The position numbers were made by a program, and so were the translations under genes. 50,763 nucleotides of DNA from Thiobacillus denitrificans (GTDB taxonomy: Bacteria; Pseudomonadota; Gammaproteobacteria; Burkholderiales; Thiobacillaceae). The DNA lies in contig DYIY01000023.1 in assembly GCA_020723405.1 (NCBI GenBank), positions 1 through 50,763 on the forward strand, written 5' to 3'. The notes beneath the pieces were generated by a model. The model saw nothing but the letters and a program-made list of their open reading frames with translations. It was not told the origin of the DNA and did no database searches. Below, piece after piece: positions 10,269-13,158 of this stretch (the first letter of the stretch is position 1; each line of letters begins with the position of its first letter).

Positions 10269-10348
10269 GGCTCACACCACCTCCGCCTCCATCACCTGCT
10301 CGAAGGCGATCCGCCCGTCCACCACGTCCACCCGGATGATGTCCTTGG
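10269..10348 (-). repeat. 80-bp direct repeat, left copy (duplicate of clpB 3' end)
   Basis: These 80 bases are identical to 13079-13158, the last 77 bases of clpB plus three beyond its stop. The sequence runs from GGCTCACACCACC to GATGATGTCCTTGG in the same orientation. Similarity stops abruptly on both sides. It is therefore a detached copy of the clpB terminus, 2810 bases from the real one. Confidence 0.95.
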
Positions 10349-10453
10349 CCTGACGCTCCAGATATGGCAGCGAACAATCTCTTAAATTCCCCGGGTTGAA
10401 GTACACACAAACGCGCTATAGAGTCCGCCAGCCAGGGTGGAGACAACAAATCC

Positions 10454-10966
10454 GTGAATTACACGTCCAGCACAGAGCAAGAAACCCGGGGTCATTTGAT
10501 CGACCAGGACTTGGCACGTGCTGGCTGGAATGCGGCGAAACGGACCCTCATCGAAGAATTTTCTGTAGGAATCCAATCGGATGATCCACGCAATCACCCG
10601 GAATTTGCGGACTACGCCCTCCTGGGTAGCGATGGAACCCCCATTGCCATTGTTGAAGCCAAACGCAGCAGCCGCGACGAGTTGGCCGGCAAACGCCAAG
10701 CCTCCGACTACGCCGACCGGATTTCGGCCCGCTTCGGCCAGGATCCTTTCATCTTCCTGACCAACGGCCAGACCATTCAGTTTTGGGATCGGGAGCGATA
10801 TCCCCTGAGAAAGATTGCCGGCTTTTACACCCGTGATGATCTGGAGCGCCTACGCCACCAGAGGCATTTCGCCGAAGCATTCGGTGCAATTACGATCAAC
10901 CCCGACATCGCAGGGCGCGACTATTGGTCCAGCCATCATGCTTTCCGCAATCAATCCCGCAGGTGA
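10454..10966 (+). pseudogene. hsdR: Type I restriction enzyme HsdR, N-terminal fragment
   Basis: From GTG 10454 the frame encodes ETRGHLIDQDLARAGWNAAK, then GSDGTPIAIVEAKRSSRDEL, then DPFIFLTNGQTIQFWDRERY and GFYTRDDLERL. This is the N-terminal nuclease domain of HsdR, with the PD-(D/E)XK core residues in IVEAK. Family similarity ends at about NPDIAGRDY (near 10925), and the frame stops at 10966. The helicase/translocase domains (some 600-800 residues) are missing, so no restriction activity is expected. No hsdM or hsdS gene is in the window. Confidence 0.8.
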
Positions 10967-10973
10967 AGCGCGC

Positions 10974-11258
10974 GTGAGCAATCTGAACAAGCTGCTGAAT
11001 CTGGCCGAACGCGGAACCAGGGAATCCAAGGCTGAGTACGCCAAGCAGCAAGGCCTCTTGAAGGGCCGTGAGCGTAAGCGACTGCAACGGGGCGAGCCCC
11101 GCCATACCCAGGCCGAGGTCACCGCCTTTGCCAAAGGGTATCGGGATGACCTAATGGCGTCTGAGCCCTATCACGAGGTCCACCAGGTTTTGGCCAGTGC
11201 ATTGTTGGATCAAGCCCGGCTTGATGCCTGGCAGGCGGAATTGGGATTGGTAACATGA
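10974..11258 (+). CDS. Small unknown protein preceding the DUF1016 nuclease
   Basis: GTG 10974 has an AGGTGAA site about five bases upstream and gives a 94-residue, charged, soluble protein starting SNLNKLLNLAERGTRESKAE. A basic stretch (GLLKGRERKRLQRGEPRH) suggests nucleic-acid contact. ATG 10938 is in frame and would add 12 residues. The stop overlaps the next start by four bases (ATGA), so it is coupled to the DUF1016 gene and may be its partner. I do not recognise the family. Confidence 0.55.
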   Translation: MSNLNKLLNLAERGTRESKAEYAKQQGLLKGRERKRLQRGEPRHTQAEVTAFAKGYRDDLMASEPYHEVHQVLASALLDQARLDAWQAELGLVT

Positions 11259-12304
11259 CTGACAACACGCCAGCCTCCCTCACCCCCGCCCCCACCGGCT
11301 ACGCCGACTGGCTGGCCGACCTGAAAACCCGCATCCACAACGCCCAGCAGCGCGCGGCGCTGGCGGTCAATCGGGAACTGGTGTTGCTGTACTGGCAGAT
11401 CGGGCGGGACATCCTGGCGCGGCAGGCGGAGCAGGGCTGGGGCGCGAAGGTGATTGAGCGGCTGGCCCATGATTTGCGCACTGCCTTTCCCGACATGAAG
11501 GGGTTTTCCCGCGCCAATCTGATGTATATGCGGGCCTTTGCCGAGGCCTGGCCGGATGCCGAAATCGTCCAACAGGCTGTTGGACAATTGCCCTGGGGCC
11601 ATAACCTGGTGCTGCTGACCCGCCTGAAAGACCCGCGCCAGCGCCTGGCCTACGCCGAGGCCGCCGTGACCCACGGCTGGTCGCGCAATGTGCTGAACAT
11701 TCAGATTGAGGCCCGGCTGTTGGATCGCACTGGTCAGGCCGTCACCAATTTCGAGGCGCGTTTGCCCAAGCCGCAATCCGATCTGGCTCGGGAATCCTTG
11801 AAAGACCCGTACCGTTTCGACTTTCTGGGTATTGGTGATGAGGCGGGTGAGCAAGAGATCGAAACCGCCCTGGTGTAGCACGTCACCGAATTTCTGCTGG
11901 AACTGGGGGCAGGCTTCGCCTTCGTCGGGCGTCAGGTGCTGCTGGAGGTGGGTGGGGATGATTTCTTCATCGACCTCTTGTTCTATCACCTCAAGCTGCG
12001 CTGCTACGTGGTGATCGAACTCAAGGCAGGCAAGTTCAAGCCGGAGCATCTGGGGCAGTTGGGCTTTTATCTCACTGCGGTGGATCGGCAGGTGAAAAAC
12101 GAGCAGGACAACCCGACCATCGGCCTATTGCTATGCAAGAGCAAGAATAAGGTGGTGGCCGAATATGCCTTGGGCGACAAATCCCAGCCCATGGGCATCG
12201 CCGAATACAAGCTGCTCGAATCCCTGCCCGCCGAACTGCAGACCAGTCTGCCCAGCATCGAGCAGATTGAACGGGAGTTGGGAGACGTGGGGGAGACGAA
12301 ATGA
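11255..12304 (+). pseudogene. DUF1016/YhcG PD-(D/E)XK nuclease, interrupted by amber codon
   Basis: The frame is continuous over 349 codons except for one TAG at 11876-11878. The N-terminal domain (ADWLADLKTRIHNAQQRAAL, then LLYWQIGRDILARQ) and the C-terminal nuclease domain (HVTEFLLELGAGFAFVGRQ, FFIDLLFYH, then YVVIELKAGKF) match YhcG proteins end to end. The nuclease residues Asp in FFID and Glu-Lys in IELK are intact. The context suggests GAG became TAG. YhcG-like genes often accompany type I restriction loci, and an hsdR fragment is here. Readthrough by a suppressor, or restart at the ATG or GTG codons after the stop, is possible but untested. Confidence 0.85.
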
Positions 12305-12423
12305 ACGATGCTTTGTTAAGGAAGCACATCCAGTCCTATCTGTCCCATCTCAAGAAAAACCCTGAAAAAAACAGGGCTGATCTGGAAGGCGGATCCAATC
12401 GAAGTGGGGGGAGTGTCTTGTGA
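12301..12423 (+). CDS. Short frame of 40 codons, unknown
   Basis: ATG 12301 overlaps the DUF1016 stop (ATGA) and a GGGGGAGA site lies upstream. It encodes MNDALLRKHIQSYLSHLKKN, then PEKNRADLEGGSNRSGGSVL. The basic, helical start looks protein-like, but the tail does not, so it could be the stub of a truncated downstream gene. Confidence is low. Confidence 0.3.
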   Translation: MNDALLRKHIQSYLSHLKKNPEKNRADLEGGSNRSGGSVL

Positions 12424-12452
12424 GCGACATGTAAGGTTTGAAGTCGCGAATC

Positions 12453-12746
12453 TCAAACCAGCCGTTCTTGCCAATATTCCGGCTGCCGATGCAGATTCAT
12501 CACCGCGACTATCCAGATGTGGTTTTCCTCCACCGCGTAGAGCACACCATAAGGAAAGCGATGTACCAAAGCGCGCCGAATCTCGCCGTCCAACACCTGC
12601 CAGGCCTGGGGGTAGGCCAGAATGCGTTGAATCGCGGCCCGGACCTCGGTGGTGAAATCCAGTCCAAGCCCCGGCGCGCGTTCTTCGTAGTACGCGATAG
12701 CTTCCAGAAACTCCGCTTCCGCCTCCGGGTGGAAGTCGAAGTTCAT
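12453..12746 (-). CDS. RelE/ParE-family toxin
   Basis: The 97-residue product begins MNFDFHPEAEAEFLEAIAYY and continues with FPYGVLYAVEENHIWIVAVM and HRQPEYWQERL. That is the full ParE/RelE fold pattern, with the conserved C-terminal H..R.P.YW motif. ParE-like members inhibit gyrase and RelE-like ones cut mRNA; the YYEERAPGLG segment favours ParE. It overlaps the antitoxin stop by four bases (ATGA) and has no visible damage, so the pair may still be active. Confidence 0.9.
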   Translation of the reverse strand: MNFDFHPEAEAEFLEAIAYYEERAPGLGLDFTTEVRAAIQRILAYPQAWQVLDGEIRRALVHRFPYGVLYAVEENHIWIVAVMNLHRQPEYWQERLV

Positions 12747-12967
12747 TTCGCGTAAAGCAGGCGTATCCGCTCGAACACGGCTTCGCCAGCCACTGCTTCC
12801 ACCTGTCCAGAGCGAAGTTCATCCAGTCGGCGATGCGCCACAGATGCCCAAGCCCTATCTACCTCAGTCTCCGGTGGATTGAGACTGGACAGCAGGTTTT
12901 CCACCATGCGGGTGCGCTCTTCCACCGGCAGGGAAACTGCTTCGGCAATCAATTCGCTGGTTTTCAT
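12743..12967 (-). CDS. Addiction-module antitoxin (TIGR02574-like)
   Basis: I start at ATG 12967 (MKTSELIAEAVSLPVEERTR) because an AAGGAGG site lies just upstream on the minus strand. An ATG 24 bases earlier is in frame but has no such site. The 74-residue protein has the helical SLPVEERTRMVENLLSSL segment and a tail (AWASVAHRRLDELRSGQVEA) typical of the addiction-module family paired with ParE/RelE toxins. It should neutralise the toxin and repress the operon. Confidence 0.88.
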   Translation of the reverse strand: MKTSELIAEAVSLPVEERTRMVENLLSSLNPPETEVDRAWASVAHRRLDELRSGQVEAVAGEAVFERIRLLYAK

Positions 12968-13040
12968 TTGGCCTCCTTGAACCAAGCCCAAGTCGAGTCT
13001 ATCAGCCAGTTTGAGTACTGCCCACGCAGGTCAGTATGAA

Positions 13041-13064
13041 ACGCCCGCTTGAACGCAGGCGTTC
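13041..13064. other. Hairpin between the TA promoter and clpB end
   Basis: AACGCCCGC and GCAGGCGTT pair with one mismatch around a six-base loop. It lies between the clpB 3' end and the TA operon start and may help end clpB transcription, but no T-run is present. Confidence 0.35.
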
Positions 13065-13078
13065 CACACTCGGACGAT

Positions 13079-13158
13079 GGCTCACACCACCTCCGCCTCC
13101 ATCACCTGCTCGAAGGCGATCCGCCCGTCCACCACGTCCACCCGGATGATGTCCTTGG
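13079..13158 (-). repeat. 80-bp direct repeat, right copy (true clpB 3' end)
   Basis: This copy includes the clpB stop codon (13082-13084) and its last 24-25 codons, ending in the [11 protein letters not shown]-terminus. It is identical over 80 bases to 10269-10348. Confidence 0.95.

What the first reader, a model, noticed from the sequence alone, without database searches (positions are those of the whole stretch)
10269..13158. Identical 80-bp copies of the clpB 3' end bracket a decaying defence islet
10269-10348 and 13079-13158 are identical over 80 bases and in the same orientation. The right copy is the true clpB terminus including its stop. Between them lies about 2.7 kb with an hsdR stub, a DUF1016 nuclease with an amber codon and a ParE-type TA pair. 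This looks like an element that inserts at the end of clpB and restores it, a target I do not know to be used. The perfect repeats contrast with the decayed cargo, which suggests gene conversion, recent rearrangement or a late second insertion. No integrase remains.
Basis: partly seen in the sequence, partly recalled or inferred. Interest (0 to 1): 0.7.

Follow-up and report, generated by a model that had tools for sequence, protein, structure and literature searches.

The report
Defence islets stacked behind clpB gene
In a group of environmental bacteria, anti-virus gene clusters appear to have been inserted again and again right behind the chaperone gene clpB, each time leaving an old piece of clpB's tail behind; the 80-base repeat looks like one worn-down scar of this kind rather than the signature of an enzyme-driven mobile element.

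Summary
The 80-base perfect repeat is real; its left copy is a displaced clpB 3' end. It is probably not an attachment site. Sister genome G010 has the same islet in fuller form: clpB, a 12-kb type I restriction islet, a 490-base clpB tail, older toxin-antitoxin genes, then a second, more decayed clpB tail. The window's copy looks like that tail shortened by a deletion between CCAAGG repeats. Of 20 genus genomes whose clpB end was found, 11 carry displaced clpB pieces. Cargo differs by species (type I or III restriction-modification, Druantia III, toxin-antitoxin pairs). Pieces start at many clpB positions (nt ~607 to 2534; at least six joins). No tyrosine or serine recombinase was listed within 40 kb of a clpB piece (one list was cut). 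An isolate of a sister genus shows the pattern around a GT4-conflict gene. Two other restriction islets in the genus are bracketed by repeated gene ends (mutS 5' end; 3' end of a small gene). Best reading: homology-anchored insertion with long, variable target duplication, repeated at one anchor gene so that older islets are pushed outward. A new variant of a known process; the mechanism is inferred, not shown.

The parts
13082..15680 (-). clpB, the anchor gene; frame shifts near 13444
   Evidence: C-terminal 120 aa match PF10431; orthologues in relatives
13079..13158 (-). right copy of the 80-bp repeat: the current clpB 3' end with stop
12743..12967 (-). antitoxin (Unstab_antitox)
   Evidence: PF09720; start codon chosen by comparison with relatives
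12453..12746 (-). ParE-type toxin
   Evidence: PF05016
12302..12400 (+). 5' remnant of a gene that is 362 codons long in G010 (no Pfam or PADLOC family)
11255..12304 (+). YhcG/DUF1016 nuclease gene with an in-frame TAG at 11876-11878
   Evidence: PF17761 and PF06250 in separate pieces
10815..11258 (+). ORF of unknown family
   Evidence: no Pfam family
10454..10966 (+). 5' stub of hsdR (type I restriction subunit)
   Evidence: PF04313 HSDR_N; aligns to the intact G010 hsdR start
10269..10348 (-). left copy of the repeat: displaced clpB 3' end, read here as the remnant of a longer tail
9979..10185 (-). remnant of a small ORF that follows clpB or a clpB tail in G003, G010 and G015
9926..10003 (-). 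5' remnant of a nucleotidyltransferase gene (DUF2204-like in G010, just under the Pfam cut-off)
9520..9940 (+). transposase-like remnant (recalled look, no Pfam hit)

Best explanation
The region behind clpB is a recurrent docking place for defence islets in this genus. Incoming DNA that carries a clpB 3' part next to defence genes recombines by homology inside the resident clpB; its far, non-homologous end joins somewhere inside the resident clpB. The cell keeps one complete clpB, gains the islet, and a clpB tail is left at the islet's far end. Repeats of this push older islets and tails outward; tails shrink by deletions between short repeats. The window is a late stage: most of the type I islet is gone, the tail is cut to 80 bases, and a toxin-antitoxin pair lies next to clpB where G010 has the 3' part of another gene. 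Shown: displaced tails, variable starts, varied cargo, more decay outward in G010, no recombinase listed nearby. Inferred: strand exchange in clpB, illegitimate far-end joining (or single-crossover integration of a circle), the entry route and the order of events.
For: G010 has three clpB ends in a row separated by different cargo, the outer tail more decayed (97% inner; 92% and 84% pieces outer). 11 of 20 genus genomes with a clpB end carry displaced pieces. At least six different joins, two shared by several species; the HigBA-flanked join holds different cargo in G013, G019, G006. The window tail begins exactly at a CCAAGG that the G010 tail also has at its start. PF00589 and PF00239: none listed near clpB. 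ComEC in 21 of 23. Same scar at two other anchors. Controls: 0 of 20 other stretches with repeats 5 kb or more apart. Isolate case L085 argues against a draft-genome artefact.
Against: Test for chimeric clpB ends was inconclusive. Tails in G000, G010 and L085 are closest to their own clpB, so a foreign donor is not visible there. Microhomology at the joins cannot be tested without the donor. Nine of 20 genomes show no tail, though three of these contigs end 0.7 to 7.6 kb after clpB. Most genomes are drafts; G006 and G018 brackets are inferred from contigs that end in clpB pieces.
Confidence: 0.58

Rival explanations
1. A site-specific integrative element (tyrosine or serine recombinase, since lost) inserts into the clpB 3' end and brings a replacement end; the repeats are attL and attR.
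For: Target gene end kept intact, direct repeats at both ends, recurrent use of one gene.
Against: Tail starts at six or more different clpB positions; no PF00589 or PF00239 match listed near clpB in 23 genomes, list of PF00589 cut; 80 bp is explained as a shortened longer tail.
Confidence: 0.1
2. Whole clpB was duplicated together with foreign DNA; the redundant outer clpB then decayed from its 5' side, giving tails of any length.
For: Some tails start as early as nt ~607; G055 and G084 list two clpB genes.
Against: No tail keeps the first ~600 nt; two joins are shared by several species rather than scattered; no intact pair around an islet was seen in the fetched loci.
Confidence: 0.14
3. 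clpB tails are portable homology handles: [tail + cargo] units leave as circles by recombination between the repeats and enter another clpB by a single crossover.
For: Direct repeats allow it; module order differs between the window and G010; G015 carries a moaC piece fused to a clpB tail with cargo at another place, the order a re-opened circle would give.
Against: No circle was looked for in reads; the G015 case has other readings; in the window the toxin pair next to clpB has no tail of its own.
Confidence: 0.14

Closest known systems
Insertion with long (and variable) target duplication linked to restriction-modification genes (Nobusato et al. 2000; seen only through passages in PMC1643837, PMC3031569, PMC4978471)
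   Same: Restriction genes inserted with a long direct repeat of target sequence, no integrase described in the passages seen
   Different: Here one core gene is hit repeatedly, tails are stacked, and cargo includes Druantia III, RhuM-like and toxin-antitoxin genes
Serial displacement arrays by homology-facilitated illegitimate recombination, proposed for Vibrio cholerae T6SS effector-immunity modules (PMC5361080, passages)
   Same: One homologous anchor, older modules and gene 3' ends shifted outward, no integrase
   Different: There the anchor is part of the changing system; here it is an unrelated chaperone gene
Hotspots without mobile elements exchanged by recombination at flanking core genes (PMC5635113, abstract and passages)
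   Same: Variable cargo beside a core gene, no recognisable mobile element
   Different: Duplicated anchor ends are not part of that model in the passages seen
ICE at a lysine tRNA gene adjacent to clpB in Pseudomonas syringae (PMC3583860, passages)
   Same: Mobile DNA beside clpB
   Different: The target is the tRNA gene, with a XerC/D recombinase; clpB is not described as duplicated

Membership tests
Site-specific integrative element at a gene 3' end | Integrase in or beside the element | tested here: not met
   No listed PF00589 or PF00239 match near clpB in 23 genus genomes; nearest listed on such a contig 47 and 53 kb away; PF00589 list cut
Site-specific integrative element at a gene 3' end | Fixed crossover (att core) | tested here: not met
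   At least six tail starts in clpB
Site-specific integrative element at a gene 3' end | Direct repeats with target gene end restored | tested here: met
   the window clpB has a frameshift further upstream
Insertion with long, variable target duplication | Long direct repeat of target sequence on both sides of restriction or defence genes | tested here: met
Insertion with long, variable target duplication | Empty site with one copy in a close relative | tested here: inconclusive
   Relatives with one clpB end exist (for example G015 contig C10, G020) but with other outer flanks
Serial displacement by homology-facilitated illegitimate recombination | Older modules and anchor ends lie further out | tested here: met
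   G010: inner tail 97%, outer pieces 92% and 84%; one genome only
Serial displacement by homology-facilitated illegitimate recombination | Microhomology at the non-homologous join | not testable with these tools
   Donor sequence at the join is unknown
Serial displacement by homology-facilitated illegitimate recombination | Anchor gene recombined (chimeric) | tested here: inconclusive
Tandem duplication of the islet | Same content repeated between copies | tested here: not met
   Cargo between successive clpB ends in G010 differs

The most novel reading that the evidence does not exclude
The clpB tail is a portable homology handle: units of clpB tail plus defence cargo leave as circles and re-enter any clpB by the cell's own recombination, making an integrase-free cassette system for immune genes at one chaperone gene, with modules shuffled between species.
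Probability: 0.14. Interest if true: 0.75.

Novelty: new variant of a known kind. Interest (0 to 1): 0.5.

Why it matters
Defence islands turn over fast and many have no integrase. Here each insertion leaves a scrap of a slowly evolving core gene, so the order, relative age and joining point of successive islets can be read. That makes the open question of how integrase-less islands enter chromosomes testable at one locus.

Tried and rejected
tRNA as target: no tRNA or tmRNA in the window. Site-specific integration: set low on variable starts and no listed recombinase near clpB. Tandem duplication of the islet: cargo between successive tails differs. Breakpoints at Walker A codons: considered because tails in G006, G013 and G019 start near the NBD1 P-loop; dropped because those share one outer flank and the others start elsewhere. 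A vehicle: in viral contigs 4 stretches matched a pattern and none was confirmed; plasmids gave 112 and phages 115 records, best identity about 64%. The small ORF plus nucleotidyltransferase as native neighbour of clpB: weakened, since the small ORF also lies at other intergenic places. 100% identity as proof of a recent event: weak; at the 97% of G010, 80 matching bases have a chance of about 8% (my arithmetic). Weak clpB-like matches of 45-76 nt downstream of clpB in G011, G012 and G016 were not counted as tails. L196 repeat 7.7 kb apart is a dispersed palindrome, not a gene end.

Full report
Observation. The repeat is exact: 10269-10348 equals 13079-13158, same strand, 80 bases. The right copy is the end of clpB (minus strand); the left copy is the same end standing alone. 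Between them are an HSDR_N stub, DUF1016/YhcG in two halves with a TAG, and ParE with its antitoxin. The clpB frame shifts near 13444, perhaps a sequencing error.

Relatives. The 120-residue clpB C-terminus was searched in 41 genomes, and 27 stretches, most around clpB, were fetched. The most informative relative, G010, has on one contig: full clpB; a 12-kb islet with a gene of no known family, YhcG, a PDC-M01B-like gene, an AAA ATPase, HsdS, HsdM and HsdR; a clpB tail (nt 2121-2610, 97% over 490 nt); a helix-turn-helix gene, a small ORF, a nucleotidyltransferase and a HigBA-like pair (that name is by eye; the ORF scanned had no Pfam hit); a second clpB tail in two pieces; then the ParE pair that sits beside clpB in the window. 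The shared islet pieces are 89-91% identical between window and G010.

What the 80 bases are. Upstream of the tail, window and G010 share the hsdR start region up to GGCCAAGG. G010 continues from clpB nt 2121; the window continues into the last 77 nt of clpB, which begin with CCAAGG. The simplest reading is that the window's tail was once as long as G010's and lost about 410 nt between two CCAAGG repeats. G007 and L106 share an internal deletion that can be read the same way, at a 10-base repeat.

How common. Displaced clpB pieces were found in G000, G002, G003, G004, G006, G007, G010, G013, G015, G018 and G019: 11 of 20 genus genomes whose clpB 3' end was found. G007 rests on a 37-nt match plus a junction shared with L106. 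G002 and G004 appear to carry the same allele and may be one population. G006 and G018 are inferred from contigs that begin with a clpB end and finish inside clpB. G001, G008, G011, G012, G014, G016, G020, G021 and G022 showed none that I counted; weak 45-76 nt matches in G011, G012 and G016 were left out, and the contigs of G014, G021 and G011 end 1.9, 0.7 and 7.6 kb after clpB. G005, G009 and G017 had no clpB end in the search. Among 80 named loci, the pieces that lie outside the genus or may do so are in Parasulfuritortus cantonensis (L085, tail 95% over 265 nt) and L106, a contig labelled Sulfuricellaceae with a junction like that of G007. In 100 family genomes, of which 77 are outside the genus, the one listed extra case was G064, whose spacing equals that of L085; the list was cut at its weak end, and G055 and G084 list two clpB genes.

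Junctions. Tail starts fall at clpB nt ~607-625 (G013, G019, G006; G010's outer tail shares their flank), ~1879 (G007, L106), 2046 (G003), 2121 (G010, G018), 2209 (G015) and ~2322-2333 (L085). Shorter ones in G002 (2351) and the window (2534) share the flank of G010 and G018. So at least six joins, some shared among species. The HigBA-flanked join holds different cargo: Druantia III in G013 (DruE3 2336 bits, DruH3 369 bits), type III RM with HEC-01 and a DrmD-like helicase in G006, type III RM in G019. Cargo can therefore change inside one bracket. In L085 the cargo is a 1789-codon GT4-conflict gene with TPR repeats.

Recombinases and uptake. PF00589 matches in 23 of 23 genus genomes and PF00239 in 17 of 23. 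None listed lies near clpB; the nearest listed on a contig with a clpB piece are about 47 kb (G015) and 53 kb (G020) away; the PF00589 list was cut. ComEC, a DNA-uptake protein, is matched in 21 of 23. Natural transformation is possible, not shown.

Controls. In 20 other 20-kb stretches of 8 genus genomes, 2 had a direct repeat of 75 bp or more and none had copies 5 kb or more apart. In 28 further stretches (27 around other HsdM or YhcG genes, one around an integrase match; two overlap the first set), 9 had such a repeat and 3 had copies 5 kb or more apart. L188 (G016): 322 bp of the 3' end of a 150-codon gene, up to its stop, is repeated beyond a type I RM islet, next to a stub that reads like the start of DruH (by eye). 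L173 (G012): 112 bp including the mutS start bracket a type I RM islet; half of this repeat is a palindrome of a dispersed kind. L196: a dispersed palindrome only. So the scar is not unique to clpB, but clpB is the most frequent anchor seen here.

Concerted evolution. In the last 77 nt, clpB and tail differ at 0 sites in the window genome and 5 in G010, against 6 (clpB-clpB) and 4 (tail-tail) between the species; 2 sites pair the copies within genomes, 0 across. Over 490 nt G010's copies differ at 15 sites, against 24 between species. This hints at exchange between copies; the numbers are small. Tails in G000, G010 and L085 are closest to their own clpB; in G002, G003, G006, G015 and G019 the tail is about as far from its own clpB as from that of other species. 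A test for chimeric clpB ends was not conclusive.

Against. The central steps were not observed. Most genomes are drafts. An empty site with the window's own outer flank was not found. The order of events in the window is inferred.

Known work. RM genes inserted with long and variable target duplications were described by Nobusato et al. 2000; I saw this only through PMC1643837, PMC3031569 and PMC4978471 (passages). Outward displacement with one homologous anchor was proposed for Vibrio T6SS arrays (PMC5361080, passages). Hotspots without mobile elements, exchanged through flanking core genes, are in PMC5635113 (abstract and passages). The ICE beside clpB in P. syringae uses a tRNA gene (PMC3583860, passages). 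Searches for clpB as an insertion target (listings) showed no paper that I recognised as describing this; the library lacks most subscription journals.

Verdict. Real, and most likely one eroded example of a recurrent process. New variant of a known kind.

Noticed in passing
L034 10256-11720 and L203 (G015 contig C4): A 368-bp 3' part of moaC (96% to the moaC that lies behind clpB on contig C10), lacking its first codons, is fused to a clpB tail followed by the small ORF and the nucleotidyltransferase, far from clpB. The order is what a re-opened circle would give.
   Followed up: partly
L188 2040-2361 and 12304-12625 (G016): A second anchor: 322 bp of a small gene's 3' end repeated beyond a type I restriction islet.
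   Followed up: partly
L173 1548-1659 and 11323-11434 (G012): A type I restriction islet bracketed by a 112-bp repeat holding the mutS start.
   Followed up: partly
window 9979-10185; L139, L141-L149: A small ORF, usually with a nucleotidyltransferase gene, recurs in 11 of 23 genus genomes, also away from clpB (beside nrdA-like or der/bamB-like genes, named by eye); it may be a mobile toxin-antitoxin-like pair.
   Followed up: partly
L085 10597-13040 (Parasulfuritortus cantonensis): The GT4-conflict gene behind clpB contains a long array of repeats about 147 bp apart, 84-97% alike.
   Followed up: no
window 13440-13460: The clpB frame shifts in a C run; sequencing error and real defect cannot be told apart here.
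   Followed up: no
L196 4031-4115 and 11724-11808; also L191, L063, L188: A dispersed palindromic repeat of about 75-85 bp between genes in several genus genomes.
   Followed up: no
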